A stretch of 64,000 bases of DNA from Diogma glabrata (taxonomy: Eukaryota > Arthropoda > Insecta > Diptera > Cylindrotomidae), in NCBI GenBank assembly GCA_963693315.1, contig OY856186.1, forward strand, positions 460,893,272-460,957,271, read 5' to 3'. Shown one piece after another: positions 18,362-52,995 of this stretch. Made by a program: the position numbers and the translations under genes. Each line of letters starts with the position of its first letter. The first letter of the stretch is position 1. The notes below the pieces were generated by a model that saw only the letters and a list, made by a program, of their open reading frames with translations, ran no database searches and was not told the DNA's origin.

Positions 18362-18823
18362 TCAACCATTCTCTCCACTCTCATCCACCTCATTCATCCA
18401 CGGCTCAAACCCCCCTGGTCGACACCTCCTTCTCAACCCCTGACCCCTTATGTACATATTATAAAGGAAATTCACACAAAAAAAATTCCCAAAAAAAAAT
18501 TAAAAAAACCAATAACAAAAATGATTTTGTTACAAAATTTATATTCTCAAAACCAATAATAAAAAACTGTGGTTTAAATTATTTACCGTTTTCTATTAAA
18601 GATTTAAAATTTAGATAGTATTCTAACAAAAATATATTATTTTACGTTAATATATTATTTTTATATATCATATATTATTTTTGAGGAAAAATTAATTTTA
18701 AAAGTAATCTTTTTTTAAAATTAATTTGATTATACAAAAAAACCCACAGGTTTATCAAAAAAACCTAAACTGGTTTTATTTTTCCAAAAAAAAATAAAAA
18801 AAAATATCCCTACAAAGCCCCAG
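18362..18823 (-). other. Leader of the nested element, LTR-proximal part
   Basis: AT-rich with A-runs; no gene seen. Confidence 0.5.
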
Positions 18824-18841
18824 GTCCCTGTTTCGGCGCCA
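18824..18841 (-). promoter_or_regulatory. Primer-binding site, tRNA-Lys type
   Basis: On the minus strand it reads TGGCGCCGAAACAGGGAC, two bases after the end of the 5' LTR. TGGCGCC...AACAGGGAC is the classic complement of the 3' end of a lysine tRNA, used to prime minus-strand DNA synthesis. Confidence 0.85.
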
Positions 18842-18843
18842 CT

Positions 18844-19898
18844 TATTATAATTGGACTTTTGTTACAAAATATGTTGCCACGGGATACAATTTCCCCTTA
18901 GCGAATCATAAACTTTGGGAATCTCTTAATTGGAGTAATTTATCTCAACATTACAAATGGGAAAAAAGGAATAATTAAACAAAAATTAATATATTTAGAA
19001 TCAGAAATACCTTAAATTATAACTGTTGATTGGTGTAACCATTAACTTCCAGTATGATGTCCTATTTCCCAAGGTTTAATTTCAAAAGAAAATTTAGCAG
19101 CATCTGATGTTAGCTTTTAATTCCCTTCCTTAAATAGTTTTATAGCTTGTTTACAATTTCTCAGCAAATTATTGATAAATATATTGAAATGTTCATTTGT
19201 GTGTACTACAGGCATTTGATCTCCATGTTTAAAATAAATCAAACGTAATTTATGATATGTATCACTTTATTATTTTATTTTCGTTTCCAGACACATATAA
19301 TTTGAAACACACTATTCAAAACTTCATAGAACATTTTTTTGTGTGGTTAAACATAGCATTACAAAAATTTGATATAATTATCAATGAACTTATTTTTTTA
19401 CTAAACATAAAGATGTTTAGAACAAACTTTAACAACAATATAAAATTATGTTTATTTCTTATTTTTAGTATAAAAATATTTGTGTCGTTATTGACACAAA
19501 GCTGAATTGTTTTCTTCTTTAATAACAAAATCGGAATTTTTGAAAACTGAATTAAACATTTTGTTTGAAGAACAAAAATGGAATGAATGTTGGAAAAATC
19601 GAAAAATGTGATTTTATTTTCTTTGACATCTTCCGATGTCAAAATAAATCGTGTTATACTCAAAATTCAGTAAAGATTAGTAACGACATCTGTTCGCTAG
19701 AATTGGAAATAAAATTGAGTACGTTCGTTTGCTTTTTATAGTATATTCGAAATTTAACTAGCAGTTAAGTATTAGAAAATTTTAAAATTATTATTAATGT
19801 AAAAATGAACGGAAACTAATGAAATACATTTTTATTGAATTAGAAAACGAAGATGAATTTGGTTTTATTATTGTTTTGCGAATATTGCGGACGTTACA
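18844..19898 (-). repeat. 5' LTR of the nested Ty3/gypsy element
   Basis: 1055 bp, nearly identical to 10018-11072. On the minus strand it runs from TGTAACGTCC (19898) to TATAATA (18844). It would contain the element's promoter and polyadenylation signal. Confidence 0.9.
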
Positions 19899-22565
19899 AC
19901 ATGTCATCGAAACCACAGGTCAACCTGTGTATCGGAAAGCGAGACGGCTCGATCGCAATAAACTCGAAATTGCAAAACGCGAATTTCAGTACATGGTGAA
20001 TAATGGTATATGTCAACCTTCAAAATCACCATGGGCAAGTCCTCTGCACATGGTACTGAAAACGAACGGGGAATATCGTCTGTGCGGGGATTACAGGGAA
20101 TTAAATTCAAATACCCAGTCCCCCATATTCAGGACTTCAACCATCTACTCCACGGGAAGCAAATTTTTTCGGTAGTTGATTTGGTTAGAGCATATAATCA
20201 AATCCCGGTTAGTCCGACGGATGTTCCTAAAACTGCCATCATAACGCCATTCGGGTTATTCGAATTCAAGAAAATGACCTTTGGACTACGAAATGCAGCT
20301 CAAACATTTCAACGCTTCATGCAACACGTACTAACCAATCTCGATTTCGCTTTTGTATATTTAGACGATATACTAATCGCGTCCAAAAATGAAGACGAAC
20401 ACGTAACTCATTTGCGACAATTATTCGATCGATTACGTCAGTACGGAATGGTTGTCAACGTTAATAAATGCGTTTAAGGCGAAAAAGAAGTCAAGTTCTT
20501 GGGTCAATTAGTCAATAAAGACGGAGTGAAACCCCTCCCAGAAAAGGTACACTCAATTTGCGAATTTCCTGAACCTACAGATGTACGTGGACTACGTCGC
20601 TTCTTAGCAATGTCCAACTTCTACCGAAGGTTCATAAAGGATGCAGCAACGATACAAACACCATTACTGAGTTTTTTAGTCGGCAACAAGAAGAACGACA
20701 AGAAACTAATTTCATGGACGGAAGAATCTCGAAACGCTTTCAGCAAATGTAAACAGGCATTAGCAGATGCCGCCTTGCTGGCACACCCAGCACCGAACAA
20801 AGAAATCGCATTAATGGTTGACGCGTCTGATTTCGCTATGGGAGCAGTAATACAACAACGAGTTGATAATTACTGGCAACCGCTAGCCTATTTCTCTCGA
20901 AAATTCAACGAAACACAACGCAAATACAGCACGTACGACCGCGAGCTAATAGCGATATTCACAGCAGTTAAATATTTCAGGCACATCTTGGAAGCACACG
21001 CATTTATTATCTATACAGATCATAAACCGATAACGTTCGCGTTCCGACAAAAACCGGATAAAGCTTCACCCAGGCAAACACGACAACTAGACTTCATAGG
21101 TCAATTCTGTACAGATATACGACACATATCTGGTTCTGTTAACATAGTGGCTGACGCGTTATCACGCATTACGTCGATTGATACGTTCCCACTCGCAGAA
21201 ATATTCACAGACATCACTGATGCACAAAATAACGATGAGGAATTGACTATGATACTTAACAGTGACACAAGTCTCAAACTATCCAAATTACAACTACCAA
21301 ACAGCGACTTGGAGATGTATTGCGATACAACCACGACACAAATTCGTCCTTACGTACCGAAAGTATTACGACGATCGATCTTTAAACATTTTCACAACAT
21401 GGCACATCCTGGAATCAGAGCAACAACTCAGCTAATCAAATCCAGATTCGTGTGGCCATCTATAACTAAAGATTGCATCAACTGGACTCGAAGCTGTGTA
21501 CCGTGTCAACGGGCGAAAGTATCACGTCATACAAAAAGCGAACTAGGTATATTCAAGGTACCAGATCAACGATTTACACACGTAAATATCGACTTGGTTG
21601 GACCATTACCTGTCTCACAGGGATACACCTACTGCTTAACATGCGTTGACCGTTTTTCACGCTGGACGGAAGCTTTCCCGATCGAAGACATAACCGCCGA
21701 GACTGTCGCAAAGTCATTCTACGTAAACTGGATCACTCGATTTGGCGTCCCACAAGCGGTAACGACAGATCAAGGTCGCCAATTCGACTCAAATCTATTC
21801 CGCGAACTGAACCAATTTTTAGGGATGAAACATTTTCGCACGACACCATACCACCCACAATCCAACGGATTAATTGAGAGGTGGCATCGTGACATTAAAG
21901 CGGCAATCAAAAGCCACGTCACGGAAAGTTGGGTCGATGTCTTACCAACAATTATGTTAGGTATGAAGGCGGTCATGCATCCAGACCTTGGAGCAACAAC
22001 CGCAGAAATGGTTTACGGCACAACTATCCGTTTGCCAGGCGAATTTTTCGATCCAAAACAAAATTTCGAAAATCAAAGTCAACTCGTAGAACGAATTAAA
22101 AACGATTTTAATAACTTGAAACCACGGCAAACTTCAAATCATGGAAAACAAACGATCTTCGTCAATAAAGATCTGAAAACCTGTTCTCACGTTTTCGTTA
22201 GGAACGATAAGGTGCGAACGCCTTTGCAACCACCTTATGACGGTCCTTACGAGATCATCGAGCGTAACGCGAAGATTTTTAAACTTAACATAAAGTCAAA
22301 ACATGTTAACATTTCGATTGACAGACTCAAACCTTGCTTCTTACTAGCCGACACCACCAACGAAACATTAACTCAGTTAACGACCGAGGAGGACACCACA
22401 ACATCCAACTTATCACACATACGGACTAAAACGTTATCAGATCAAACACATTTAAGTCCCAATACCAACAAGGAGACAAGAACTGGTCGCAAAATACGTC
22501 TACCAGTAAGGTTCCTCGAACCCCTCAACACTTCGACAATAGTTATCGTTCCAACTACGTCGTAA
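19899..22565 (+). pseudogene. gypsy-1 pol: RT, RNase H, integrase
   Basis: The frame resumes after the nested element at HVIETTGQP. RT blocks: WASPLHMVLKTNGEYRLCG, then a small deletion with a frame change near 20100, then [28 protein letters not shown] and the active site FVYLDDILIA. An in-frame TAA sits at 20475-20477. RNase H follows with [19 protein letters not shown] and TDHKPITF. Integrase has a zinc domain (H...[11 protein letters not shown]) and the triad: D in [10 protein letters not shown] in [11 protein letters not shown] in NGLIERWHR. The C-terminal part ends DRLKPCF plus a tail to 22565. It is about as diverged from gypsy-2 as two families of one clade. The stop and frame change mark it as inactive. 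Confidence 0.9.
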
Positions 22566-27702: not shown

Positions 27703-27838
27703 CTATATCCCCATTCCTTCCATTTTCCTCATCTCCTTCCTTTATAGTCGACGTGGTATCTTCGGATATTCAAAGAGTCTAAATAATGAATATTTCATAT
27801 TTAGTGTGCTAAACATGTCTAACTAATTAATAAAAAAA
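27703..27838 (+). repeat. Poly(A)-ended retroposon tail, copy 2
   Basis: Matches 7326-7468 with a longer pyrimidine segment and only about nine A's at the end. The second copy supports a dispersed retroposon family. Confidence 0.7.
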
Positions 27839-29036
27839 AATCATTCAATTTCACCAATAAACATTTGAATTATACTAATAACAAATATTTATACGTCTGG
27901 CCTACTGGGATATCAAAAATTATCAGTTTAATTTTGAAATAATTAACTGATGTCACAGTAGACCAACGTATAATTCATAAAAAATAGATAAAAAAAAATG
28001 AAAAATGGCAAAACATTTTCTAAACGAATTCCCCTCGTTCGTTGATAAATTCTTATAATTTTTTGAAAAATTCCTCAAGCAAGTGGTATTGATAATAGCC
28101 CTCGGCCTACGGCCTCGTGCTTTCATCAATATATTTGCTTTCGAAATTTTAGGCAAAAAATTATTTCGAATTATCACCGCCCTTGGGAAATTACAACTGA
28201 AAATTTTTTGCCTGTTTTATTTTAATTTAAGCCAAAGAAATTCTCTAAAATATAATGACATCATTCAATTTCCCCAATAACATTTGAATTATACTAATAA
28301 CAAATATTTATACGTCTGGCCTACTGGGATATTAAATTATCAATCTAATTTTGAAATAGTTAACTGATATCACAGTAGGCCAACGTATAATTCATAAAAA
28401 ATATATAGAGAAATGAAAAATGGCAAAAAGTTTTCTAAACGAATTCCCCTCGTTTGTTTATAAATTCTCATAATTTTTTGAAAAACTCCTCAAGCAAGTG
28501 GTATTGATAATAGCCCTCGGCCTACGGCCTCGTGCTTTTATCAATATACTTGCTTTCGAAATTTTTGGCAAAAAATTATTTCGAATTATCACCGCCCTTG
28601 GGAAATTACAACTGAAAACTTTTTGCCTTAGTTTTATTTTAATTTAAACCAATGAAATTCTCTAAAATGTAATGACATCATTCAATTTCACCAATAAACA
28701 TTTGAATTATACTAATAACAAATATTTATACATCTGGCCTACTGGGATATTAAAAATTATCAGTCTAATTTTGAAATAATTAACTGATATCACAGTAGAC
28801 CAACGTATAATTCATAAAAAATATATAAAAAATGAAAAATGGCCAAACATTTTCTAAACGAATTCCCCTCGTTCGTTGTTAAATTCTCATAATTTTTTGA
28901 AAAATTCCTCAAGCAAGTGGTATTGATAATAGCCCTCGGTCTACGGCCTCGTGCTTTTATCAATATACTTGCTTTCGAAATTTTTGGCAAAAAATTATTT
29001 CGAATTATCACCGCCCTTGGGAAATTACAACTGATA
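27839..29036. repeat. Tandem repeat, ~418-bp unit, 2.9 copies
   Basis: Units start at about 27840, 28259 and 28678, each with TCATTCAATTTC(A/C)CCAATAA. Spacing is about 418 bases and similarity is high. Each unit holds an inner inverted repeat (TATACGTCTGGCCTACTGGG against CAGTAGACCAACGTATA) and a GC-rich palindromic block CCCTCGGCCTACGGCCTCG. The third unit is cut short where the palindrome array starts. The 60-150-codon frames here repeat with the unit and are not genes. Confidence 0.9.
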
Positions 29037-30528
29037 ATTTTTAAAATTATGCAAGTTGTGTTTTTTATGAAATCCCATATAAAATTTTTTGAATTTATTC
29101 TCTTATCCCCCTTTTGCAGCGCCTTTGCGGTAAATGCGGTAAACACCGCTATATAGAGCGATTTTTCTGTTCCGGTGTTTACCGCAATAGCGCTGCAAAA
29201 AGGGGATAAGAGAATAAATTGAAAAAATTTTATATGGGACACAACTTGAATAATTTTAAAAATTATTTATGAAATTTTTCTTTTTACTACAATAATAATT
29301 ATTATTTAAATTTGTTAATGAACTATTATTGACTATATATTAAGCTATATATTATATTATTATTGACTATTTATTAAATATAGAAAATATTTTATTTTCT
29401 TCTGTCCGTAAAACAAATACGAAAATAGGTTAAATTTTTCATACAACTTTGTATGGGAACTTTTGGTAATTTTTATGTTTCTTTTTTGAGCGAATTAAGA
29501 ATAATATTTTATATATTACGCTTACTATATAGTCAATAATATTTCATTAGAAAATTAAAATTGTTTAATTGTGGTAAAATGAGAAATCTTATAGATTACT
29601 TTTAAATTTATTCAAATTGAGTTTTGTATGAAATCCCATAGGAAATTTATTCTCTTATCTCCCTTTTGCAGCGCCATTGCGGTAAGCACCGGAACAGAAA
29701 AATCGCTCTGTAGAGTGTTTGCCGCAATGGCGCTGCAAATGGGGGATAGGAGAAAAAATCACAACACTTTTATATCGAACACAAATTGAATAATTTTAAA
29801 AGTCATCTATAGAATTTCTCATTTTACCACAATTGAACAATTTTAATTTGATTATAAAGTATTATTGACTATATATGAAGCGTAATATATAAAATATTAT
29901 TTTTAAGGCGCTAAAAAAACATAAAAATTGCCAAAATTTCCCATACAAAGTTGTATGAAAAATTTAACCTATTTTCGTATTTGTTTTACGGACAGAAAAA
30001 AATAAAATATTTTATATATTATGCTTAATATATAGTCAATAATAGTTCGTAAACAAATATAAATTATTCAAGTATAGTAATATGAGAAATTTCATAGATA
30101 ATTCTTAAAATTATGCAAGTTGTGTTTTGTATGAAATCCCATATAAATTTTTTGAATTTATTCTCTTATCCCCCTTTTGCAGCGCCATTGCGGTTAACAC
30201 CGGAACAGAAAAATCACTCTATAGGTCGATTTTTCTTTTCCGGTGTTTATCGCAATGGCGCTGCAAAAGGGGAATAAGAGAATAAATTCAAACAATTTTC
30301 TATGGGATTTCATACTAAACACAATTTGAATAATTTTAAAAATTATCTATAAGATTGCAATGGCGCTGCAAAAGGGGGATAAGAGAATAAATTAAAACAA
30401 ATTTATATGGGATTTCATACAAAACGCAACTAGAATAATTTAAAAAATTATCTATGAAATTTCTTATATTACTACAATTAAATAATTCAAATTGGTTTAT
30501 GACTATTATTGATTTGTAATGAAGCGCT
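29037..30528. repeat. Giant-palindrome array, block 1
   Basis: Three head-to-head palindromes with centres near 29155, 29705 and 30215, plus a half copy at 30354. The shared inner arm reads TTATCCCCCTTTTGCAGCGC then ATTGCGGTAAACACCGGAAC and AGAAAAATCG, followed by its mirror. The outer arm runs through TAAAATGAGAAATTTCATAG, ATTGACTATATATTAAGC and TTACGGACAGAA. The middle palindrome spans about 29385-30020. Neighbouring palindromes share their outer arms, so the series alternates orientation about every 260 bases. Confidence 0.9.
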
Positions 30529-33176
30529 GCTTCGTTGAATGACAACGAAGTGGCATAGCAGGTCGCGTACCTAGCGAGATTTATTTATAGCCCCAGACTA
30601 GCTGCAATCTATGGGATCGAGAAAGAAATCCTGCTACTTCAGTACAAATAAACAATAGTACGCGTGAAACATGATAAGAACAGATAGGAGAAAATAAGCA
30701 GGTGAAGGCTTGAGACTCTGGCGACCCTCATTCGCAAAAAGAACCACGATCACCACGTCCAACCCTCTACTTCAACACACTATTTCACACTTTCACTTCT
30801 CATACACCCGCGAACCCTCACCCGCATACACACACGCACACACTTACACACACATGCACACAATCAACCATACCTAAATCCATGCCCCTAAGTTGAACAT
30901 TTCAAAATAATATTACACCAACTTACCGGTAACATAATTTGAAAAGTTCCCGTTAGTGATTGAATTATTTATTCGATTATTGTGGTAATCGGTTACATCC
31001 AAATATAATTTCATAGACCAAATGGTAACAAATTTTGTAAGTTTTTTAGTAGTAAAAATCCCGCGCATTCAAAATTTGTAATGTATACAGAGAACTCGCA
31101 AAAAAAAATAACATTTTGTTTGTTTTACTGTAAATTGTTAACCTTTAACGCTTTCGCAGAGGGAATTATATATATTATAATATATTTATATAATAGGCCC
31201 AATTGCTGGTTTGAAACAAAATAACCAGAATACGGAATTCCAATATTATCTCCCTTCATAACACCACGCCCAGGATATATTACGAATTAAAGTATGTTTA
31301 TGGCATGTGCCGGTTTGATGTTAATGCGTCTGCGCAGAATCAACAATCCCAATATCAATTATTATTACCTTTGTTTAAATTAAATTAAAATATAACATCA
31401 GAATCCACGAATAACGTTAGATCTTGGCCTGATGTGATCGAATAACAATAACAAAAAACAGGTTTGTCTTCTAAAAATAAAAAAAATTAGAGGTAATCCT
31501 GGCTACTTGAGATAGCCGTAGCCGTGTTGTGTGGAAATAAACTCATTTAATCTAACACATTCTCCTCTGACTCATACGCACATGTACCTTATACACCCGT
31601 TCATACATATCCCCATCCACACATCCATCTACAGACACTCGTACACCTACATACTTCCCCATAATCATTCATGCATAAAATAAAAATAAAAAATCAGATA
31701 TGACTCACCACATGATGTTGTCCCGTCCTACTCTTCTATCCTTCAAATTCAGCCGCTCATCTCCATCAGGTCATACATAGACCAGAGCTCGGCCAATGTG
31801 ATTGCAACTTGCCACCGTTGTTAAGATCCAAGTGTGATATAAATTAACGGATACAGAAATTGGTAATAATTTATGGCAGCTGTAATGAATCAATCCGGAA
31901 ATAACAACCGGTTTCAGCGATGATTCACCGTTAACTCTCGGTGATGAAATGTGATGATATCAACTTGTAACCAACACCGTTAACAGAACTAATCCAGACA
32001 GCCTCAAGATCACTTGTCAATTTTTGTCATGAATTTTATTATAATTTTACTATAATTAACCGTTGGGATAGATGTTATTGCCCGAATTTGGAAATGACGT
32101 CAACCAATGAATCTAACCACTAACACAGCTTCAGAAAAAAAAGACTTATATTTTATGGATTCCGCTAACTGGATAAATCACAGCACACATATCATATGTA
32201 TAATTTTTGTTTTAATTTTCATTTAATTGGATTGATACATGGAATATAATTAGACTATGAAATTTTACTAGTCACTGACAATGAGTTGAATATTAAATTT
32301 AAATTTTAACTAAATAAATTACGATTTTTTTTAATTAACTAGATAACTTCACAAACATACAGCGATTGAATCTCTTTTTTTGTAAATGAATAACTTAATT
32401 AAAATTTTTAACTAAATAAATAGATGGTTTCACAAACATATAGTGATTAGTATTTTTTTTATTGTTACTTGGCCTTACTTGGACTGTGGAAATATACATG
32501 CTAACTTCAACTCAACAAAGTGGTTATATTTTGATTACGTAAATCGTCGCTTTAATAATGAAACCACGTATGCTATTTATACGTTGTTTTTATATAATAG
32601 GTGCGCTGCATTCCCCATAAGGGTATCTTTGAATTGGCATTTTTACATTTTCGAATTATTTTATGACTGGGGGTAAGAATTAATAAATTATAAATTAACG
32701 TCCATGCAAATGCATGCGCACATCAAACTTTAAACTCAAATATCTCGAAACTATACTTTTGCGTATACGTCATTTCATTATTAAAGCGACGAAATTTGTT
32801 TACTTAATTGTCAAAGAAAATGACGTGAATTACACAAAAAAACTATTAAACTAACTATTATACCGAACGTTATATTCGCGATGCACAAAATTGAAAAAAT
32901 TTCCACAATTAATCTGATAACAAAAAAAACCAGATCGATCAAATATGGCGCTCGCAACGGCACAAACATATAAATAATTTTTTTTGATTTTGGTTCACTG
33001 ACACTAAATCGGTACATTAGAACCCCACGAATTGATATTATTGTAAACTACTAAAAATTTGACTAATTAATTTTATACGCACTATCGCGAATTTAATAAA
33101 AAAAAACATTTGCTAATTTCGACATTCAAAATGTAATATTTTACAAAATCACAACTTGTCAACTTCGACCACACAG
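30529..33176. other. Unexplained insert in the palindrome array, left part
   Basis: The array breaks at 30528 (...TTTGTAATGAAGC) and resumes near 35671. This part has a balanced-composition stretch at 30530-30900 with a CA-rich run (30825-30870), further balanced patches at 31500-32060 and AT-rich DNA elsewhere. TGGCGACC at 30719 resembles a tRNA-Arg-type primer-binding site, but no paired LTRs were seen. The 77-codon frame at 32443 has no recognisable domain. Confidence 0.4.
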
Positions 33177-33820
33177 GGGTGCGTTTCGAAATTAACCACG
33201 GTTAACCATAAGGTAATAATGTCACTAATGTCATAGTCAAAATAGTGACGTCAAATATTAAATTCAAATTACCATAGTAAAGCTGTCAAAGTTAAATTGT
33301 AATAGACCGCTAAAAATTCAAAATTAATAAAAAATAATATTCTTATTACGATAAATAAAACTAAAAATGTAGTGCATGTTTTTTATTTCTATAATTTATT
33401 TTTCAGTCTTCAGTATCAAATAAAAATACTAAAAATAACACATTTCACTAAAAATTATTAAATACTTCATAAATAATAATTAAATGTACGATATATTCAC
33501 AAAACAATATAATTTCTAACTTTTTTTTCCAATTAAAATTTTCTTTTATTATAAAAAACTATATTGTGTTTGATAAATCGGTTGACATGTCGATTTAAAT
33601 ATTTATATGTTTTGACATTAGAACCTCAACAAACTCTACTCTAGACTTGAGTAACAAAGTTAAAGTAGTGACGTCACAATTTACTATGACAACTAATTTT
33701 TATAGTTTTGGAACGATAGTACATCTGTCATCCAGTAAATTTTTTATTTTGCGGTTAATTATGGAACGACATTTGGTAAAGTTAACTGCGGTTAACCATA
33801 GTTAATTTCGAAACGCACCC
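33177..33820. mobile_element. MITE, 644 bp, 3-bp CAG duplication
   Basis: The ends are GGGTGCGTTTCGAAATTAAC and its reverse complement, extending inwards to (C/T)GGTTAACC. They are flanked by CAG at 33174-33176 and 33821-33823. Inner copies of GTGACGTCA occur on both sides (near 33244 and 33668). It has no transposase. The superfamily is uncertain: the 3-bp duplication would fit PIF/Harbinger-like or CACTA elements, though CAG is not the usual Harbinger target. Confidence 0.7.
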
Positions 33821-33823
33821 CAG

Positions 33824-35670
33824 ACAGATCGAAAAGTCAATCCCAAACTGAGACACTACATGTCTTCAACCACGTATTTATAGGCTAAAGTCACGTCGTT
33901 TTTACACCTCAATAAACCGATAAACGCGATAATTCTGTTTATTGGTTATTCTCTTTCGTTATATCTTGTACTAAAATTGGAGAATAATTATAAACAGAAA
34001 CGTGGATTATGAAAATCTACATGGGAATAGCGCAAGTTATTGTACAGCTGTTCTATGCTACCCAGTTAGAAGTGTTATCAATCAGTTATTGATAAACACT
34101 CGATAATGCAACATCTATATATCGATAACGCGTTATGTACATCATGATGAAATATCATCGATAATTTTTGTTCAAAACTGTGGCACCACATTATCGATGA
34201 AAACTATCAATAACATACAAGCTAGCTATTATCGATAACGCAATCAATTATCTGTTACCAATATCGTTGTCAATAACTGTTATTGAAAAGGTTAATGAAT
34301 TGAAACCATTATTTGGTTTCAATACAAAATATAAATAAAAATCGGGGTGGTTTTAATTACATATTAATTTTATTTTCATATATTATATTTTAAAAAACGG
34401 TTACATATTTACATTTAAACTTATATTGAATTTATATTTTAAAAATCAACAATTATATATTTTTATGAAATTGAAATATGTACATATATAAATTTAATTT
34501 TAGGTTATAGATTAGTAGGCACTATATAATATAAATATTAAAAAATTATGCACATATTTCTTATATATAAAAAATAAACATATGACTGTTAAGATTTTTG
34601 TTTTATCTAACAATATTAATTTTATAATACACCTTAATTTTATAATATAATAATTATCACTTCATTTATATAAATCACAATTCACAACACAGTCATTACT
34701 TTTGAAATTTGACAAAATGTCTGACTTTTGCTTACAAAAGTGAGACAGCGCACCCAGATAACAATTTATAGTTTTTCCTTTGTTCTGCTGGTCGATAACA
34801 ACATCAATAGTCGCGTTTTTTCTTCGGACAACTGTCCGGGACAGCGATTGTTTTATTTATATTTTTTCGTTCAAATTAAAATTATTTCAATTTTGATTGC
34901 ATAAATATTAAATATTTATCGTTTATCCATCCATTTTAATTAATCTCTTTAAAATAAATTGACAAATTAAATTTATTTTTACCAGTTCGCAACAAATCTT
35001 GTGTTTTATCGAGAGCAGTTCAGAACAGGTGAGGGAAATAAACAATGGGACATTTTTAGTACTATTTTTGAAATTAACACTATCTTCATGTATGTTTATT
35101 TTTAGATGTCAAAAACATTACATATATGTACATACGTATAAAACAAAAAATTAAATTTAATCTTTAATTTAATTTTTTTTTTAGTTCGAATCTCGTCGTT
35201 TAAATATAAAATATATGGCTCTTTATGAAATAAACAAATATAACACAAGCCTAAACAAACATTAATGGCGATTGTCAAAATATTCACTTGAAGTTAGCTA
35301 CAATTTAGTTCTAAAACTTTCCCTGTATTTTACCAATATTTTTCTCTGTCCTGGACAGCCAGTTCGAAGATAAAACGCGACTAATAACGGTTGTTATCGG
35401 TATTGGATTTTTAACTGGTTAATTTTATATAGTGATAAACGATCACAAACTGAATAAAGGGAATTAAATTTGGAAATATCACACAACCGTTTCAGGACAA
35501 TAATTCTTTTAACAGAAACTATAGTAGATGATGACTATGGATTGAGTATAAGAAGCCATGTGTAAAGGAAAAATAAATACAACCATGAAATTTTCTGCCA
35601 AGGCAAATTTGATGTGTGTGGGACAGTGGTTCGAATTTCAATTACAGAGTTTGAATTACCCTTCATAACA
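33824..35670. other. Unexplained insert in the palindrome array, right part
   Basis: No gene. It contains a TATCGATA-rich repeat (34072-34220, listed separately) and an imperfect inverted pair. The pair is GATAACAACATCAATAGTCG with a GGACAACTGTCCGGGACAG block (34784-34855) against its mirror at 35345-35405, and may be the ends of a ~620-bp MITE. Confidence 0.4.
34072..34220. repeat. TATCGATA-rich repeat, copy 1
   Basis: CAGTTAGAAGTGTTATCAAT ... GTGGCACCACATTATCGA is shared with 44739-44896. It contains several ATCGATAA-type motifs and many short inverted pairs. TATCGATA is the known DREF/BEAF site in flies; its use here is speculation. Confidence 0.75.
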
Positions 35671-37211
35671 GATTATACATTAAGCATAATATAGAAGATA
35701 TTTTATTTTCTTCTAACTACGTAAAACAACCCAGTGAACACAAGACGTAAATATGACATCACACGAACGTCATATATATGTGATGTAGTTGTTACGTAAA
35801 TTTGACATAAAAATGACACTCGTCATGACTATATCCTGGTATCATTTATATGAGGCTTTCATGACATCACACTGATCTTAAATTTGACTTCGATATGATG
35901 TCATAATTTGGACTTAAATATGACCTTATTATGATTTTGTTAAATTTCACTAGAGGTATATCCATTTTAATTGTATATAGTTTGAAAAATTTTATAGTAT
36001 AGTTAGTTATTGCTTCCAAGCAGGTTATAGAATCCTAGCAGGAACGTAATGAGTAATGACCGATGAATGACTGACGGGTGAGTGTTTTTGTTATAAATTT
36101 GTTTTTTAATTGTTGTTAAATTTGTTTTTAATTAAAAATATAATACATCACAAAAAAAAATTATATTACTATGATATCAACCTTATATCGTTGTTATGAT
36201 AAATATCTCCACAGACATCACTTTTATGTCATAGTTATATCATTATTGTTATGTCATGCTCTTACGTAAACAAGTGGGAAATAATGATATACATATGACT
36301 TATATATGACCCAGATCTTACATAAGACGTGACTTAGCGTGATGTCATTTTGATATCACAATGACGTAAATGTGTTTTCTGGGAATTATACGAAAATATG
36401 TTAAATTTTTCATACAACTTTGTATGGGAAGCGACTCAAGAACAATATTTTCAATATTACGCTTAATATATTGTCAATAATACTCCATTAAAAAATTTAA
36501 ATTATTTAATTGTAGTAAAATGAGAAATTTCATAGATAACTTTTAAAATTATTCAAATTGTGTTTTATAGGGCGATTTTTCTGTTCCGGTGTTTACCGCA
36601 ATGGCGCTGCAAAAAGGGGATTAGAGAAAAAATTCAAAAAAATTTATACGGAACTTCATACAAAACACAATTTGAATAATTTTAAAAATTATTTATGAAA
36701 TTTATCATATTACTACAATGAAATAATTTAAATTTGTTTATGAACTATTATTGACTATATATTAAGCATAATATATATAATATTTTATTTTTTCTGTCCG
36801 TAAAACAAATACGAAAATAGGTTAAATTTTTCATACAACTTATGTCTCTTTTTTGAAAAACTTAAAAATAATATTTTATATATAACGCTTAATATATAGT
36901 CAATAATACTTTATAATCAAATTAAAATTGTTCAATTGTGGTAAAATGAGAAATTTCTTAGATAACTTTTAAAAATATTCAAGTTGTGTTTTGTATGGAA
37001 TCCCATATAAAATTTTTGTAATTTTTTCTCTTATCCCCCTTTTACAGCGCCATTGCGGTAAACACCCGAACAGAAAAATCGCCCTATAGGGCGATTTTTC
37101 TGTTCCGGTGTTTACCGCAATGGCGCTGCAAAAAGGGGATAAGAGAATAAATTCAAAAAATTTTATATGGGATTTCATACAAAACACAATTTGTGTAATT
37201 TTAAAAATTAT
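35671..37211. repeat. Giant-palindrome array, block 2
   Basis: The outer-arm sequence (ATTAAGCATAATATA...) resumes near 35671, is interrupted by a MITE (35730-36383), and leads to a half palindrome near 36590 and a full one centred at 37086. The latter has the perfect core GCCCTATAGGGC flanked by AATCG...CGATT and matching arms. Confidence 0.85.
35730..36383. mobile_element. CCCAG-ended MITE, 654 bp, in the palindrome array
   Basis: It starts CCCAGTGAACACAAGACGT and ends TGTGTTTTCTGGG, giving imperfect inverted ends. Flanks AA/AA suggest a 2-bp duplication. Removing it rejoins the array sequence GTAAAACAA...ACGAAAATA. The interior is full of TGACATCA/TGATGTCA-type words in both directions. 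There is no coding capacity. The same CCCAG end recurs in the element at 55550-59312. Confidence 0.7.
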
Positions 37212-37775
37212 CATATATAATATAACGAGTCGTCAAATAATAGTCGATTATTTTTCATAATCATTATTACGAATGTCATTTGAGGTCCCGAGTGCGCGTA
37301 GCGCACGAGGGAAATTTTTGACCTCAAATGGCATGAGTGGTAATGTTGAAAAATAATCGACTAATAATTTGATGACGAGTTGTATTTAGCAGACAATTTA
37401 ACGAACAGAAATAGTAACATTATTTCATACAACATATTCCTTTGTTGTCAAACAAAATTAAATATTATTTCATCTTAGTAGGCGCATAAATGTTATAAAT
37501 TTGTAATTTATTTTTGAAAAATAAACATAAACATGCAGTCATTTATGAATGAAAACGGACATTTTTACTATTTGCAAATTGCATTTACACATAATTTTGT
37601 ATGTGCATTTTGGTTTTAAATTAATATATTAAGTAGGCGAAAAATATTCGAAAATATTCGCTGTTCCTTCCTACCAGAAAAAAATAATCGAAACAAATCG
37701 TTTTGATTTGATAAAAAATAGTAAATGAAGCGTTTTGATTGGACCTTATTGAAACTTTTTTTAGAGAGTTGAATT
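37212..37775. repeat. Insert in the array with a GC-centred palindrome (37225-37385)
   Basis: The array sequence AAAATTATC|TATGAAATTT is split here. The insert opens with a ~160-bp imperfect palindrome whose arms pair AGTCGATTATTTTTC with GAAAAATAATCGACT. Its centre is GTGCGCGTAGCGCACGAGG. The rest (37386-37775) is AT-rich. Confidence 0.7.
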
Positions 37776-38845
37776 GTCTATGAAATTTCTTATTTTACTA
37801 CAATTAAATAATTTAAATTTGTTTATGAACTATGATTGACTATTTATTAAGCATAATGTTTAAAATATTTTATTTTTTTCTGTCCGTAAAACAAATACGA
37901 AAATAGGTTAAATTTTTCATACAACTTTGTATAGGAAATTTTGGCAATTTTTATGTTGCTTTTTTGAGCGATTTAAGAATAATATTTTGCATACCACGCT
38001 TAATATATAGTCAACAATACTTCATAAACAAATTAAAATTGTTCAATTGTGGTAAAATGAGAAATTTCATAGATAACTTTTAAAATTGTTCAAACTGTGT
38101 TTTGTATGTAATTCCATATGAAATTTTTGTGCTTTTTTCTCTTATCCCCCTTTTGCAGCGCCATTGCGGTAAACATCGGAACAGAAAAATCGCTCTATAG
38201 GGCGATTTTTCTGTTCCTGTGTTTACCGCAATGGCGCTGCAAAAAGGGGATAAGAGAAAAAATCACAAAAATTTTATATGGAATTCCATACAAAACACAA
38301 CTTGAATAATTTTAAAAATTATCTATGAAATTTCTCATTTTACCACAATTGAACAATTTTAATTTGCTTATGGAGTATTATTGACTATATTTTAAGCGTA
38401 ATTTTAAGAATAATATTCTTAAGTCGCTCAAAAAAGAAACATAAAAATTGTCAAAATTTCCCATACAAAGTTGTATGAAAAATTTAACCTATTTTCGTAT
38501 TTGTTTTACGGACAGAAGAAAAGAAAATATTTTATATATTATGCTTAATATATTGTCAATAATACTTCATAAACAAATTTAAATTATTTAATTGTAGTAA
38601 AATGATAAATTTCATAGATAACTTTTAAAATTATTCAAATTGTGTTTTGTATGGAATTCCATATAAAATTTTTGTGATTTTTTCTCTTATCCCCTTTTTG
38701 CAGCGCCATTGCGGTAAACACAGGAACAGAAAAATCGCCCTATATGGAATTCCATATAAAATTTTTGTGATTTTTCTTTTATCCCCTTCTTGCAGCTTCT
38801 TTGCGGTAAACACTGGAACAGAAAAATCGCCCTTTTTTCAAACAA
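37776..38845. repeat. Giant-palindrome array, block 3
   Basis: It holds a ~685-bp palindrome (about 37855-38540) centred at 38197, whose arms reach out to the TTTTACGGACAGAA block, and a partial one centred near 38735. The 60-81-codon frames that recur here simply read the inner arm and are not genes. Confidence 0.85.
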
Positions 38846-38930: not shown

Positions 38931-40124
38931 GTTATAGTAACAAGACCAAGACAAACCCAAGACCGCGCGAACTAAATGTCCCACCTCGTCTTGTACAACA
39001 TGTATAGGGTTTGTCTGGTAAGACGTGTCTTTAGTTTGTTTGGTCAGACATGTCTTTAGTTTGTCTTGGTAAACCTAAATCGTGTAACCACCTTGGTATA
39101 GAATTTGGAATTTTTGTAAATAAAATACATTTTAATAATTATGTTTAAGTTGTTTATTATCTGTAATAAAATAAACAAATATAAATATAAAAATATTTCT
39201 TCAATAAATATTTAAAATAATACTATATATACAGTTATTAATTATCATATATCAATCTGGAAAAATAAAATGGGGTTAAGCTAAAAAAATAACATATATA
39301 ATGTTTTAAAATTTGAGTATTTACTTATATATAAATATAGGTACTTACGTTTACAATTCCCTTTATTATATTTAAAAAATTTAAATATGATTAAAAACTT
39401 TAATTATAAATTCACTTTATTAAAATTAAATGGTCGACATATATATACATAAAACGTAAAAACACAATTGTAAATTGTTCTCATATAATAGTTTCGATCT
39501 TTTTCGTATGTGCGTATAAGCAGTGGCACTATAAGAGATATATGCCTTTCTCACTTCCACTAACGCACTCTTATGAATGATAACAAACTAAAGACGTGTT
39601 ATACTAGTAAGAAAAAGTTTAGTGGGAATATAATGATTATGGTTTACCGTCTTTATATCGTGGATCGTGTCTTTAGGCACGGCTTTGAATTTAGCTATGG
39701 GCAGAATATTTTTGGTATCCGGGTTTTTTGACAGATTTTATAATTGTCATAGTTTTACAATAATAAAATATTTTGTCTGAACGATTCTTAAATCGGCGTA
39801 GAAACTGAACCAAAATAAAATAGGTATATTTTAATTTACTTATCATTTATTTGTTGAATTGTTATCCTATTATTTCTTCTAGTCTATTATGTAAATTAGA
39901 TTTACATCTTACAAACGAAGAAATGCATTCTAGAAAATTCTCTTATGTTTGAAATTCAAACTAAAAACTGCTGAAAATATTGAACAAATGAAATGTTTCC
40001 AATAACTGATTTGAAGATATTGTGACGCTTAAGTTTATCTTAAATCTAATGATCATTTAAAAATAAATATCTGTAATTTTATTTCACTTCGTCAAATAAG
40101 TTTTGGACTAATTGAATTGCTAAA
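38931..40124. other. Upstream region of the zinc-finger gene
   Basis: Contains the inverted words AAGACGTGTCTTTAGTTTGT (39021) and AACAAACTAAAGACGTGTTA (39584), and a repeat at 39515-39632. From 39640 on it is AT-rich and presumably holds the promoter and 5' UTR of the gene at 40125; no core element can be fixed. Confidence 0.4.
39515..39632 (+). repeat. Dispersed repeat upstream of the zinc-finger gene
   Basis: GCAGTGGCACTATAAGAGAT ... ATGATAACAAACTAAAGACG ... GTTTAGTGGG recurs at 59424-59532 with few differences, where it lies just upstream of GET3. Confidence 0.8.
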
Positions 40125-41741
40125 ATGCATGTTCAAAGTTATACTAAAACCTACTGTTGTGTGATATGTTCCAGTAATTTTTGTACTTTGGAAAAATTTT
40201 CATTTCATAATCATAATGAACATTCTTCAGAAAAACTGCAATATACATGTCGATATTGTACAAAATTACTTGGGGATTCGGAAAAATATACTGATCATGA
40301 TAATAGTCATATATTAAAACCGTACGATTGTTTTACATTTGAAAAACACGATGCTCTAAAACTCCTGTCGAGTGATCAGAAAAAACACATAACTACTGAT
40401 GAGTCTTACACATGTAATGTTTGTAACGGTCAATTTGTGCGTTCAGAAGATTTAAATAACAGTTTGACCTTATTGGAATGTAAATTTTGTGATAAAATAT
40501 TTGCTCAAGATAAATCATTGGATAGCCATGTAGAGAAATTCCACAACACTGGCATCACATCATTATGCAATAAAATCACCAATAAAACATCAAATAAATA
40601 TCTTCGAAAATTCCAATGTCTATTTTGTAAACTGTTATTTTTTAAAATGAAAAGTCTCGAAATTCATTGTAAACGAAACCATAAAGATCAGTATAATCAT
40701 TATAGTTTTAAGATTACGAATAAAGATCTAAAATTTTGTGGAATCGAAGATAAATCTTTACAAAATTCTTCATTAAAAACTAAACTAAACAACTGTATAA
40801 TATGTAACGAACATTTCAAAAACGAAAGTGAATTAGACCTTCATTTAAAAGTAAAACATAATTCTGGGAATCCCCACAAGTGTATAAAGTGTCGAATGAA
40901 ATTTGCAAAAAGTTCAACACTTGCAAAACATACAAAAATTCATTTGGATAAAGAAAAAAAATGTTGTTTTTGTGATTCGTATTTTCAAAACAAAAATTCT
41001 TTGGAAAAACATATAAAGATGCATGAAGGAGCTGTTTTAATAAATTGCAATGTACCGTATGTTTGTAAGAAAGATTTAGAAAAGCATAATCTAACACATA
41101 CAGGAGGGAAACCACATAAATGCCCGTATTGTGATAAATGTTTTGCACAGAGTTGTGATAAAAGAAAACATATTAGAATTCACACTGGTGAACGACCATA
41201 TAAATGTAAAGATTGTGAGAAGACTTTTACACATTTAACCAGTTTAAAAAAACATAAAGTGTTACACACTGGAGAACGGCCGTTTCAGTGTACTGTTTGT
41301 GGAAAATCATTTCAACATTGTAGCAATTTGACTGTTCACAATCGAATACACACAGGAGAACGTCCATTTAATTGCAAAACGTGTGGCAAATCTTTTTATG
41401 CATTGGGGCATTATACCGATCATTTAAAAATTCATTCAGGTCAAAAAGACTATAAATGCTCTGTTTGTGACAAAAGGTTTCTCCATCAAAGTAGTTTTCA
41501 AAAGCATAAAAAAGTACATACTGGCGAAAAACCTCATAAATGCCATATGTGTGACAAACATTTTTCACAACCTGGTCATTTAAGAGAACATATGAGAATA
41601 CATACTGGAGAAAAGCCTTTTAATTGCTCCATTTGTTCTAAAACATTTCGCCGTTCTGATACATTAAAAAACCATATTAAAATACATAGTAATACCAAAA
41701 ACGGTGCGATTAATAATAGAAATCAAACAGTGCCCAACTGA
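40125..41741 (+). CDS. C2H2 zinc-finger protein, 538 aa
   Basis: An open frame from ATG (context TAAAATGC) to TGA with no intron. About 14 well-formed C2H2 fingers can be read. Seven are spaced apart: near residues 12-33, 42-62, 119-140, 165-185, 224-245, 253-273 and 280-300. A compact run of seven lies at 333-521, joined by HTGERP/HTGEKP linkers. Degenerate fingers lie near 69-88, 97-112 and 308-325. The linker-joined run is the part expected to bind DNA in the nucleus, so a sequence-specific transcription regulator is likely. No ZAD, BTB, SCAN or KRAB domain is visible, so the target and mode are unknown. AATAAA-like signals follow at about 41785-41810. Being intronless, it could be a retrocopy, but no A tail is seen. 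Confidence 0.9.
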   Translation: MHVQSYTKTYCCVICSSNFCTLEKFSFHNHNEHSSEKLQYTCRYCTKLLGDSEKYTDHDNSHILKPYDCFTFEKHDALKLLSSDQKKHITTDESYTCNVCNGQFVRSEDLNNSLTLLECKFCDKIFAQDKSLDSHVEKFHNTGITSLCNKITNKTSNKYLRKFQCLFCKLLFFKMKSLEIHCKRNHKDQYNHYSFKITNKDLKFCGIEDKSLQNSSLKTKLNNCIICNEHFKNESELDLHLKVKHNSGNPHKCIKCRMKFAKSSTLAKHTKIHLDKEKKCCFCDSYFQNKNSLEKHIKMHEGAVLINCNVPYVCKKDLEKHNLTHTGGKPHKCPYCDKCFAQSCDKRKHIRIHTGERPYKCKDCEKTFTHLTSLKKHKVLHTGERPFQCTVCGKSFQHCSNLTVHNRIHTGERPFNCKTCGKSFYALGHYTDHLKIHSGQKDYKCSVCDKRFLHQSSFQKHKKVHTGEKPHKCHMCDKHFSQPGHLREHMRIHTGEKPFNCSICSKTFRRSDTLKNHIKIHSNTKNGAINNRNQTVPN

Positions 41742-44632: not shown

Positions 44633-44903
44633 TAATGGCATCGTGTGAACACAGGCATGCTGCTTGCATATGCGAGTCGAGTAGAACAATAACTGACAGA
44701 CTGTCAATTTTTTTTTTGTTTATTAAATAGACATGAGACAGTTAGAAGTGTTATCAATCAGTTATTGATAAATACTCGAAAATGCAGCATCGACATATTG
44801 ATAACGCGTTATCGACATCATATAGGAATCTCATCGATAATTTTTGTTCTAATCTGTGGCACCACATTATCGACGAAAAATATCAATAACAAACCAGGGC
44901 TAA
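44633..44903. other. Spacer with TATCGATA-rich repeat, copy 2 (44739-44896)
   Basis: 44739-44896 matches 34072-34220. It is cut at its right end by the element starting at 44904, and the matching continuation was not found after 59423. Confidence 0.6.
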
Positions 44904-45393: not shown

Positions 45394-45632
45394 TATTGAA
45401 TTAATTAAATAAAACAAAGCAGATTAGTAAAAGTATATAATTGATTATAATTGAAAAGTTTATTAAACATATACAAGTTACAATAGACTTCAAACAACGT
45501 GTTGCTTTGTTCTTTGACAGAATGAAAAAGGAAAGAAGTTTAACAATTATAGCAATATGTAGAGAAAAAGTGTTGCCATATTAAAATTATATAATTCAAA
45601 ACTAAATTGTTGTTTACAATGTATGTTCAACA
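45394..45632 (-). repeat. Copia-like element 3' LTR
   Basis: 239 bp. On the minus strand it follows a polypurine tract AAGAGAGAG (45633-45641). Confidence 0.9.
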
Positions 45633-45663
45633 CTCTCTCTTAATCAAAAATTTTGTTTTTAAT

Positions 45664-47307
45664 TCAATTCAGACCAATTAATTTTAAAAATCTATGAAAA
45701 CTATCTTTAGTTAAAGGTTTTGTAAAGATATCAGCAAGCTGCAGTTTGGTTTCAACATAGTTTACTGCTGCTATCTTTTGTTCAATGACGTCTCTTAAAT
45801 GATGATATTTAATTGAGATGTGTTTCGTTCTCTTGTGAAACTCAGGATTTTTTGACAATTTAATAGCACTTTGATTGTCAACATTTATAATTATTGGCTC
45901 TTCAATTTCAAAATTTAAATCACTTAAGAGCTGCTTCAACCATAAGACTTCTTTTACTCCTGCACTCAGAGCAATATATTCGGCTTCGGTAGTTGATAAT
46001 GCCACAATAGTTTGTTTTTGAGAGTTCCATGTAATAGGAGCATCAGCAAGTTTAAATAAATATCCCGAAGTGGATTTTCTGGTGTCAATATCTCCAACAT
46101 AATCAGCATCCATGTAACCAACTAATTCTTTGTTGTTTCCATTGTAGACAATTGAAACATCCATTGAACTCTTTAAGTATCTAATTATTCTTTTGACTGC
46201 ATTCCAATGACACATACCTGGATTACTTAAATATTTGCTGACTTGACTTACAGCAAAGGAGATGTCTGGTCTTGATACTGTAGCTGCGAATATCAATGAA
46301 CCGACTGCTTCTCTGTATGGTACATTTATCATTAGTTCTGTTTCCTTAGTGTTTTTAGGACAAAACTCATTAGATAATCTACTATTTGCATCAGCTGGTG
46401 TCGACATTATTTTTGCATCATTTAAATTAAATAAGTTGACTATCTTCTTAATATAATTTGTTTGAAAAATTTTGATTTGTTTCAGGTTTCTATTTCTTGA
46501 AATTTGCATGCCTACGAATTGCTTATTGTTGCCGATCGTTACTTTAAATTTTTCTTTCATAGCATTCAATATATTGTTAATTGCAAGTTTAGAAGTTGCC
46601 ATTATCAGGTCATCATCAACATATAGTGCTATATAAATTTCATGCTTGTCAATTCTACCATAATAAATACAAGTATCAGCTATGGATTGTTTTAAATTAT
46701 ATTCAGCCAAAAACTTATTAAATGTGCTGTTCCATATTCTCGGTGCTTGTTTTAAGCCATACAAGCTTTTGTTTAATTTATAAACTAAATTCAATTCTTT
46801 GTTCTCAAATCCCAAAGGTTGTTTGACGTAAATTTCTTCAGTTAAATTTCCGTTTAAGAAAGCAGTTTTAATATCAAATTGTGCCATTTCTAAGTCTCGA
46901 ATAGCTGCAATAGTTAATAAAATTCTAATCGTTTCATATCTAACAACTGGGCTAAACGTTTCTTTATAATCTATGTTGGATTCTTGTTCAAATCCTTTGG
47001 CAACCAGTCTCGCTTTATATCTTTCAATTTCACCAGTTGCATCGGTTTTAACTCTGTATACCCATTTGACATCAATTGCTTTTCTATTTGCTGGTAAGCT
47101 TGTTAAAATCCAAGTTTGGTTTTCATTTAATGCAGTAATTTCTTCATTCATTGCCGTTAGCCATTTGTCTTTATTGTTTGATTTGACTGCTTCTTCATAA
47201 CTAGATGGAGTAGCAACATCAGCAAAATAAGATACACAATCTTTCATTTTTGAAGGAACTTGAATTTTTGATCTGTCTCTTAAATTATGAGGATTATCAT
47301 TGTTCAC
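45664..47307 (-). pseudogene. Copia-like reverse transcriptase and RNase H
   Basis: A 547-codon open frame, continuous but out of register with the integrase frame upstream. RT starts with WLTAMNEEITALNENQTW and VDVKWVYRVK-type copia blocks (here AIDVKWVYRVK). It continues through RYKARLVAKGFEQ, FDIKTAFLNGNL and SLYGLKQAPRIW to the active site ALYVDDDLIM. RNase H has GYMDADYVGDIDTRKSTSG, LSTTEAEYIALS and NVDNQSAIKL. It ends at 45664 just before the polypurine tract. The enzymes copy element RNA into DNA. This block is intact; the polyprotein as a whole is not. Confidence 0.9.
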
Positions 47308-47339
47308 AATCGTTTCTGCTGTTTCGTTATTTTGATCAT

Positions 47340-47769
47340 CTACCAGAATTTCATTATTATTTTGTTGTTGTTCTTGTAAAATGGATTACTGTCAGTATCA
47401 ACTTCTTCATTCAAATCTAGTATAACAAAATTATCATGCTGTTCTTCAAATTTGTAATTCTCGTCAAATGAAACATTTGTTGATATGCAAACCTTTTTGT
47501 TTTCTAAGTCCCAGAGTCTGTAATTTTTAGTAGTATTTTCGTAACCAATAAAAATCATCTTTTTGCATTTTGGATCTAGCTTACGACGTTGTTGACTAGG
47601 AATATGTTTATAGGCAACTGAACCAAAAACTTTCATGTTGCGTAAATCCGGTTTCTTTTTAAACCAAAGTTCAAATGGTGTTACGTTTGAATTTTTGTAA
47701 ACCACTCTATTTAATGAGAAAACAGCTGTGTTGACAGCTTCGGCCCAAAATTTAATAGATAAATTTTTT
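47340..47769 (-). pseudogene. Copia-like integrase, C-terminal part (after gypsy-2)
   Basis: NSKNLSIKFWAEAVNTAVF, then TPFELWFKKKPD, VFGSVAYKHIP and KMIFIGYENTTKNYRLWD. These are the standard C-terminal blocks of copia integrases. It continues the frame cut at 53542 by gypsy-2. A frame change near 47340 separates it from RT. Confidence 0.85.
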
Positions 47770-47773
47770 GAAT

Positions 47774-48326
47774 TGTGGCGAACTACCTTCAAAAATATAA
47801 TAGTTGGTTGAGACTACCTTAATTTAATTTTGAGATTTGTTTTTTACGCCTAGCCAACTAGTTGACAGTTCGTGAAAAGTAACATGTTGAAAAAAATGTG
47901 AACTCTCTATGTAAGATATTTAATCAACACGCCACGCCAAAAGTTTGCTAAGCATTTTTAAGTCTCTAATATAAAATATTTGTTGTTCGTTTAATTCATT
48001 TAATATAAAATATAGGATGTTAAGGCAAATAAATTCACATAAATGTTTTGGTGAAATGACGTAATGTGTTTCAGTATTTAGTAAATGTTTGGTGATTGTT
48101 TTATTATTGTCTACAAAATTTTATTCACATCTGCGAATGGTAAAATAAGAAAAATATTCACCTGAATCAAAATGGAACAAATTATCGAAACAATGAAGCC
48201 GCATTAAATATATACATATAATCAATTCAATTCGGAGTCAATAAATATTCAAGTATCGAGCTACTAACTGCTCTACTCTACTCTACACTGTTCTGCTCCA
48301 CTTTACGCTCCACAAGAACAGCTATA
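47774..48326 (+). repeat. gypsy-2 5' LTR
   Basis: Runs TGTGGCGAACTACC ... AGCTATA; 553 bp. Confidence 0.9.
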
Positions 48327-48329
48327 AAT

Positions 48330-48345
48330 TGGTGACCAGCCGACT
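48330..48345 (+). promoter_or_regulatory. gypsy-2 primer-binding site
   Basis: TGGTGACCAGCCGACT starts three bases after the 5' LTR. TGGTGACC is the start of the complement of tRNA-Trp used by CsRn1-type elements; the following bases match only with a small offset. Confidence 0.6.
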
Positions 48346-48467
48346 AAGAATACAATTTTGGGATTAAAAGTTCAAGTATTTTTTAAAATTAATTCATTTT
48401 TTTAAATATATTTAATTTTATTGATAATTATTTTGTTTGTTGTTCAATTTTAAATAACTTTAGAATT

Positions 48468-52991: not shown

Positions 52992-52995
52992 TGTT

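What the first reader, a model, noticed from the sequence alone, without database searches (positions are those of the whole stretch)
29037..38845. Alternating array of giant head-to-head palindromes
One ~260-base half-unit is repeated in alternating orientation, making palindromes up to ~685 bp with a perfect core (CCCTATAGGG flanked by mirrored AATCG and GGTGTTTACCGC words) and with outer arms that are themselves shared between neighbours. Simple MITEs do not alternate like this; it resembles neither a head-to-tail satellite nor a single foldback element. It may be a self-propagating foldback family, a rolling-circle or hairpin-replication product, or a source of long double-stranded RNA.
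Basis: partly seen in the sequence, partly recalled or inferred. Interest (0 to 1): 0.85.

Follow-up and report, generated by a model that had tools for sequence, protein, structure and literature searches.

The report
Back-to-back cluster of small transposons
The giant palindromes come from six copies (plus two fragments) of one small, non-coding, transposon-like element with long mirror-image ends, lying end to end in mixed directions in an animal-like stretch of genome rich in transposons; striking to look at, but of a known kind.

Summary
The palindromes are real and far beyond chance, but the proposed unit is wrong. The repeat is not a 260-base half-unit flipped back and forth. It is a ~545-bp element: ~215-bp terminal inverted repeats (TIRs) around a ~115-bp non-palindromic spacer. 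Six copies plus two terminal fragments lie end to end, joined at TATA (once TATATA, once TGTA). Two TIRs meeting at a junction make a palindrome by themselves, so arms must alternate. The spacers show true orientation: F R F F F R, not alternating. Left and right TIRs differ at recurrent columns in most copies, so the element has two distinct ends, located at the "core". Five comparable copies are 88-92% identical, and neighbours are not closest.

This fits independent insertions of a MITE/foldback-like family into short TA tracts beside earlier copies. About 6.3 kb of the 9.8-kb interval is unrelated inserted DNA. [quoted passage not shown]

The genome-wide copy search, which would settle formation mode, TSD and superfamily, could not be run: the server did not complete. 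I rate this a new member of a known kind, of low to moderate interest.

The parts
29033..29151 (.). U0: partial terminal arm of a copy, fused to the 419-bp satellite on its left and lacking about 17 bp near junction J0 (linker TATATA); no spacer, so orientation unknown
29152..29712 (+). U1: copy complete from end to end, forward by spacer (29389-29503)
29710..30223 (-). U2: copy, reverse by spacer (29898-30008); its end at junction J1 (linker TGTA) lacks about 17 bp
30220..30525 (+). U3, left part: left TIR with an internal 105-bp duplication (30252-30455)
30526..35650 (.). About 5.1 kb of unrelated DNA inside U3, holding other inverted-repeat elements; not part of the array; boundaries approximate
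35651..35729 (+). U3, middle part (inner left TIR and start of spacer; weakest orientation call, 22.3 against 14.4 bits)
35730..36385 (.). About 656-bp insertion with ends CCCAG...CTGGG inside the spacer of U3; right boundary within a few bases
36386..36566 (+). U3, right part: rest of spacer and inner right TIR; about 90 terminal bp are missing at J3
36566..37088 (+). U4: copy, forward (deletion in spacer)
37085..37213 (+). U5, left part (outer left TIR)
37214..37778 (.). About 565-bp insertion in the left TIR of U5, holding a separate hairpin (arms within 37235-37369)
37779..38199 (+). U5, remainder; forward spacer at 37867-37981 (used as the orientation query)
38196..38744 (-). U6: copy complete from end to end, reverse; its two outer TIR ends are identical at 100 of 100 positions
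38743..38833 (.). U7: 91-bp terminal fragment, near-copy of 38651-38742; right end of the array

Best explanation
The array is a multimer of one short, non-coding class II element of MITE/foldback type: ~545 bp, ~215-bp TIRs beginning GGGCGATTTTTCTG, and a ~115-bp oriented spacer. Shown: unit structure, two distinguishable ends at the core, mixed orientation, TA-type linkers, near-equal divergence between five copies. Inferred: copies were moved by a transposase supplied elsewhere and inserted one after another at a TA/TATA tract beside a resident copy. That target reads the same on both strands, so either orientation could go in. Wherever two TIRs met, a palindrome formed. Later the array was damaged by deletions and duplications at TA steps, by exchange between TIRs, and by three unrelated insertions.
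For: Units align end to end from core to core. Left and right TIRs differ at 13 recurrent columns, 8 of them in the inner part, by a rule of at least 66% agreement on each side. In the tree of 10 of 14 arms (both U3 arms, U0 and U7 left out) L and R each need 1 change, support 89/90 (below the tool's starred level), 5 and 3 of 500 shuffles as low; the tree of 12 inner parts agrees with support 62/56, 1 and 0 of 500 shuffles. Spacer pieces give F R F F F R: U5 is the query, and the other 6 pieces all score higher in one direction, five of them by far. The 7 junctions carry TATA (5), TATATA (1) or TGTA (1). The 10 pairs among five copies (U3 left out) are 88.2-92.2% identical; the adjacent pairs U1-U2, U4-U5 and U5-U6 score 88.2, 91.2 and 91.6, the best pair U4-U6 is not adjacent. 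None of the 6 copies is interrupted by another of its family. The window holds retroelement ORFs (5 of 9 ORFs scanned, of 38 listed).
Against: No single dispersed copy with its own target-site duplication was seen, so transposition and TSD length are not shown. The outer 100 bp of the TIRs do not keep L and R apart (4 changes each, 284 and 276 of 500 shuffles as low; U1_R groups with L, U6_L with R). U3's right arm carries the L state at 4 of the 8 inner columns. The array's right edge is CGCCC followed by TTTTTT, not TATA, and its left edge is truncated, so neither flank shows a target site. No transposase with these ends was found.
Confidence: 0.68

Rival explanations
1. One or two element copies inserted, and the array then grew locally by tandem duplication, unequal exchange or template switching, with inversions through recombination between inverted TIRs.
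For: Partial duplications exist: 105 bp at 30252-30455 and 92 bp period at 38650-38833. Long inverted arms invite inversion. U2 and U4 pair by their right arms in the tree (89/85). U6's outer TIRs are identical and outer TIR types are mixed between ends, so exchange between TIRs has acted.
Against: Five copies are near-equidistant rather than nested in similarity. Unequal exchange alone gives only head-to-tail units. In U2 the outer ends group as the inner ones do, which a simple flip by recombination between its own TIRs would not give; for U6, the other reversed copy, both outer ends are R-like, so a flip is not excluded.
Confidence: 0.25
2. A hairpin- or rolling-circle-replicating element deposited the array in one event.
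For: Long palindromes with small central loops; strong predicted fold.
Against: Rolling circle gives head-to-tail units, not F R F F F R. Across-centre arms are not consistently the closest pairs. The one ORF of at least 110 aa touching the array is mechanical. Of 9 ORFs scanned elsewhere 5 match retroelement families, 1 zinc fingers and 3 nothing; the other 29 listed ORFs were not scanned against Pfam, so a replication gene in the window is not strictly excluded.
Confidence: 0.03
3. The array is kept as a source of long double-stranded RNA or another host function.
For: 37774-38621 folds at -528 kcal/mol against -140.4 (sd 7.34) in 20 shuffles. The spacer varies less than the inner TIRs: 11/441 against 83/1274 cells, Fisher p 0.0009; against outer TIRs 51/948, p 0.017.
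Against: Any long-TIR multimer folds so. Copies are broken by insertions and deletions. The lower spacer divergence may reflect composition (GC 0.27 against 0.14-0.19 in inner TIRs) or exchange between TIRs, and the cells are not independent. No expression data.
Confidence: 0.03
4. Assembly artefact: repeats joined in the wrong order.
For: Related repeats are hard to assemble; no reads were available to test this.
Against: The five comparable copies differ by 8-12%, so they can be told apart, and unrelated insertions mark two copies.
Confidence: 0.03

Closest known systems
SaTar elements (guayule, rice, sorghum, citrus; non-autonomous MULEs; PMC5907723: passages and sections 14 and 17 seen)
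   Same: Short elements, some with long TIRs (180 bp of 380, 170 of 425); uninterrupted copies stacked end to end through microsatellite, (TA)n among them; fusions where deletions removed linker and element ends.
   Different: SaTar clusters mix different families, in plants, and 11 of 15 guayule families have members with 10-bp TSDs. Here one family, linker only 4-6 bp, no TSD seen, animal-like genome, no MULE link tested.
MuTAnT (Medicago; PMC4486113: passages seen) and Micron (rice; known here only through PMC5907723)
   Same: MuTAnT: foldback element with long TIRs (144 bp of a 292-bp copy; TIR mask beginning GGGG) flanked by TA repeats. Micron: small MITE-like element targeted to (TA)n.
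   Different: Plant MULEs; MuTAnT makes a 9-nt TSD. The passages seen describe insertions flanked by TA repeats, not multimers. No sequence relation tested.
gadMor-hAT-1784 MITE arrays in Atlantic cod (PMC12368964: passages seen)
   Same: Animal example of tandemly arranged inverted repeats made of MITEs; mean lengths 1.3-5.8 kb.
   Different: hAT-derived, 600-bp TIRs, 167-169-bp repeating units, at inversion breakpoints; no sequence relation tested.
Tetris foldback element, Drosophila virilis (PMC4079207: passages seen)
   Same: Insect foldback-like element with repeat-bearing TIRs around a middle domain; source of tandem arrays.
   Different: Its arrays are of 220-bp repeats from inside the TIR; TSDs of 8-10 bp were found.
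MITE clusters in rice and maize (Jiang and Wessler 2001; paper not held, known through its citation in PMC5907723)
   Same: MITEs inserting next to or into resident MITEs to form clusters.
   Different: There, insertion into a copy is reported as commoner than adjacent insertion; here 0 of 6 copies is interrupted by its own family.

Membership tests
MITE / non-autonomous TIR element | Short (<1 kb), no coding capacity | tested here: met
   ~545 bp; the only ORF of 110 aa or more touching the array (28790-29266, minus strand) runs across the neighbouring satellite and the U0/U1 palindrome
MITE / non-autonomous TIR element | Terminal inverted repeats | tested here: met
   217-nt arms, 93% complementary, 115 nt between, in U6 (pair I5)
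MITE / non-autonomous TIR element | Target-site duplication of fixed length around single copies | tested here: inconclusive
   Only junctions between copies are present; TATA, TATATA or TGTA lies between copies; no isolated copy in the window
MITE / non-autonomous TIR element | Many dispersed copies in the genome | not tested
   The genome search did not complete
Foldback element | TIRs make up most of the element | tested here: met
   ~430 of ~545 bp are TIR. The fold is of most of two adjacent copies (U5, U6), not of one element
SaTar-like TA-targeted multimer | Copies stacked end to end, none interrupting another | tested here: met
   0 of 6 copies interrupted by another copy; three interruptions by unrelated DNA
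SaTar-like TA-targeted multimer | Microsatellite linkers between copies | tested here: inconclusive
   Only 2-3 TA steps at 6 of 7 junctions, TGTA at one: too short to tell a microsatellite from a 4-bp TSD
Mutator superfamily (MULE) | 8-11-bp TSD and a MULE transposase partner with the same ends | not testable with these tools
   No isolated copy and no partner element seen in the window; genome search did not complete
Head-to-tail satellite DNA | All monomers in one orientation | tested here: not met
   Spacers read F R F F F R

The most novel reading that the evidence does not exclude
An animal counterpart of plant SaTar elements: a family whose insertion machinery targets TA tracts left beside its own ends, so copies stack end to end in random orientation without interrupting each other and build kilobase palindromes.
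Probability: 0.3. Interest if true: 0.45.

Novelty: new member of a known kind. Interest (0 to 1): 0.24.

Why it matters
Multimers of long-TIR elements make very long palindromes. Such palindromes are known to be prone to breakage and inversion and can be read into double-stranded RNA (general knowledge), so seeing that they can arise from ordinary end-to-end insertions removes the need for a special replication mode. If the end-to-end bias is real in an animal, it gives another lineage in which to study insertion next to one's own copies.

Tried and rejected
Half-unit model: rejected because the spacers and the end-specific TIR columns define a 545-bp unit. Strict alternation and head-to-tail satellite: rejected. 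Homogenisation across junction palindromes: inner arms outside within-unit and junction pairs average LL 87.4%, RR 87.8%, LR 83.5%; the five measurable junction pairs range 79.4-89.1% and within-unit pairs 81.1-87.3%; outer arms give no clear answer. Rfam: 0 matches at gathering scores; tRNA scan: 0. Exact arm words in viral contigs: 0 hits for a 31-mer and a 22-mer. A 20-mer in genome contigs hit two bacterial MAG contigs; with the whole unit as query, L001 shows only a 24-nt and L002 only a 20-nt match, so I treat both as chance. Plasmids: no match. Two protein searches meant to name the host gave retroelement relatives only, best hits 43% (LINE query) and 63% (gypsy query) identical; of the best 120 rows listed each time (5893 and 6327 hits), the named sources were Euphydryas editha (44%), Cordylochernes scorpioides (51%), Trichuris suis (54%) and Hermetia illucens (56%), none close enough to name a species. 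Six paper searches were made.
Full report
WHAT IS THERE. The interval 29037-38845 contains a real set of very large inverted repeats. The longest ungapped one has 424-nt arms, 91% complementary, centred at 38197. The left block aligns with its own reverse complement over about 1.3 kb at 1218 bits, while 50 dinucleotide shuffles of the interval gave at most 51.8 bits. The core word GTTTACCGCAATGGCGCTGC is found 13 times with up to 3 mismatches, against 0 in 100 shuffles. Chance is excluded. The exact core CCCTATAGGG occurs once, at 37082.

THE UNIT. Taken from one core centre to the next (38196-38744) as query, the sequence matches whole units elsewhere in the array. Oriented and aligned, the copies run end to end: about 215 bp of left TIR, about 115 bp of spacer, about 215 bp of right TIR. 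The spacer is not palindromic. With U5's spacer as query, the other six pieces score 22-180 bits in one direction against at most 20.3 in the other (U1 180/14.4, U2 172/16.4, U3a 22.3/14.4, U3b 69.9/14.4, U4 107/16.4, U6 180/20.3). Only U3a is weak, and U3b agrees with it. The orientations are F, R, F, F, F, R.

TWO ENDS. Left and right TIRs are similar but differ at 13 columns under a rule of at least 66% agreement on each side, 8 of them in the inner part; U3's right arm carries the left state at 4 of these 8. In a tree of 10 of the 14 arms (both U3 arms and the fragments U0 and U7 left out) the left arms form one side and the right arms the other, support 89/90, which is below the tool's starred level. 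Twelve inner parts agree with weaker support (62/56). The outer 100 bp do not keep this separation (4 changes each): U1's right end groups with left ends and U6's left end with right ends. In U6 the two outer ends are identical over 100 positions. I read this as exchange between TIRs after or during insertion.

WHY IT LOOKS ALTERNATING. Every TIR element carries an arm and its mirror image. When two such elements lie end to end, the arms at the junction face each other and make a palindrome, whatever the orientation of either element. The exceptions in the strand order of the core word (two + in a row at 30245 and 36591, two - at the right edge) are explained by the missing end of U3 and the extra fragment U7.

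JUNCTIONS. The seven junctions carry TATA (five), TATATA (one) and TGTA (one) between element ends. At J0 and J1 about 17 bp near one neighbouring end are missing, and at J3 about 90 bp. The fragment U7 repeats just the terminal ~91 bp. These look like deletions and duplications at TA steps (inference). By spacer, the five junctions between copies are R|R, L|L, R|L, R|L, R|R.

INTERRUPTIONS. U3 is split by about 5.1 kb (30526-35650) and by a ~656-bp element with CCCAG/CTGGG ends (35730-36385). U5 is split by about 565 bp (37214-37778) that holds a separate hairpin. Together these are ~6.3 of the 9.8 kb. The first insert contains a further inverted-repeat pair at 33164-33207/33790-33833 and a 159-bp stretch with an 88% match at 44739. 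No copy is interrupted by its own family.

HISTORY. The ten pairwise identities among five copies (U3 left out) are 88.2-92.2%. Adjacent copies are not closer than distant ones: U1-U2 is the lowest, and the highest, U4-U6, is not adjacent. Together with mixed orientation this favours independent arrivals of family members over local duplication, though local growth plus inversion is not excluded. The spacer varies less than the TIRs (11/441 cells against 83/1274 in inner TIRs, Fisher p 0.0009; against 51/948 in outer TIRs, p 0.017). Cells are not independent and composition differs, so I do not build on it.

MECHANISM. Most likely these are non-autonomous transposons (MITE/foldback type) that inserted one after another into a short TA tract at the end of a resident copy. 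A TATA target has no direction, so either orientation results. Transposition itself, the target duplication and the transposase are inferred, not shown. The search that would show them, copies across the genome, was asked for ten times and never answered.

COMPARISON. Plant SaTar elements form uninterrupted multimers through microsatellites and show the same kind of fusion by end deletion (PMC5907723, passages and sections 14 and 17). MuTAnT elements are foldback MULEs in TA repeats (PMC4486113, passages). Atlantic cod has tandem arrays of inverted repeats made from hAT-derived MITEs (PMC12368964, passages). Tetris is a Drosophila foldback element feeding satellite arrays (PMC4079207, passages). 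The present array works like these. Membership in any superfamily is open, since TSD and transposase could not be tested. That the family begins GGGCG and is flanked by TATA is suggestive of TA-targeted elements but proves nothing. No library of known eukaryotic repeats could be searched, so I cannot say whether this family already has a name.

SETTING. The window is AT-rich and holds retroelement ORFs: of 9 ORFs scanned (of 38 listed) 5 match retroelement families, 1 zinc fingers, 3 nothing. That it is an arthropod is my impression, not a result; the species was not identified.

Noticed in passing
27829-29042: True head-to-tail satellite, 419-bp period, 2.9 copies (TRF 93% matches); it directly abuts the left edge of the array.
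   Followed up: partly
9134-22565: A gypsy-type element (ORFs 9134-10152 and 19798-22565, + strand) appears to be split by another on the - strand (ORFs 11396-16400); 300-bp direct repeats at 10017 and 18843 (99%) may be the inner element's LTRs (my reading of the ORFs).
   Followed up: no
45394-55549: A copia-type element (- strand) appears split by a gypsy-type element (48393-52951, + strand); direct repeats 47773/52995 and 45394/55385 are reported as 100% identical over 300 and 165 nt, so both look young.
   Followed up: no
55550-62642: Several near-perfect duplications: 111 bp x2 (99%), 137 bp x2 (100%), 335 bp x2 (99%), and blocks of 300 and 226 bp repeated about 2.7 kb apart, beside a (TA)50 tract at 56115-56215.
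   Followed up: no
29389-38528 (spacers): The element's spacer is less variable than its inner TIRs: 11/441 against 83/1274 cells in five copies.
   Followed up: partly
33164-33833: Inverted-repeat pair (44-nt arms, 84% complementary, 582 nt between) inside the 5.1-kb insert, like another small TIR element.
   Followed up: no
34063-34221 and 44739-44897: A 159-nt repeat (88%) shared between the 5.1-kb insert and a place 10.7 kb away: another dispersed element.
   Followed up: no
40116-41741: ORF of 541 aa with many C2H2 zinc fingers: a likely host gene or exon close to the array.
   Followed up: no
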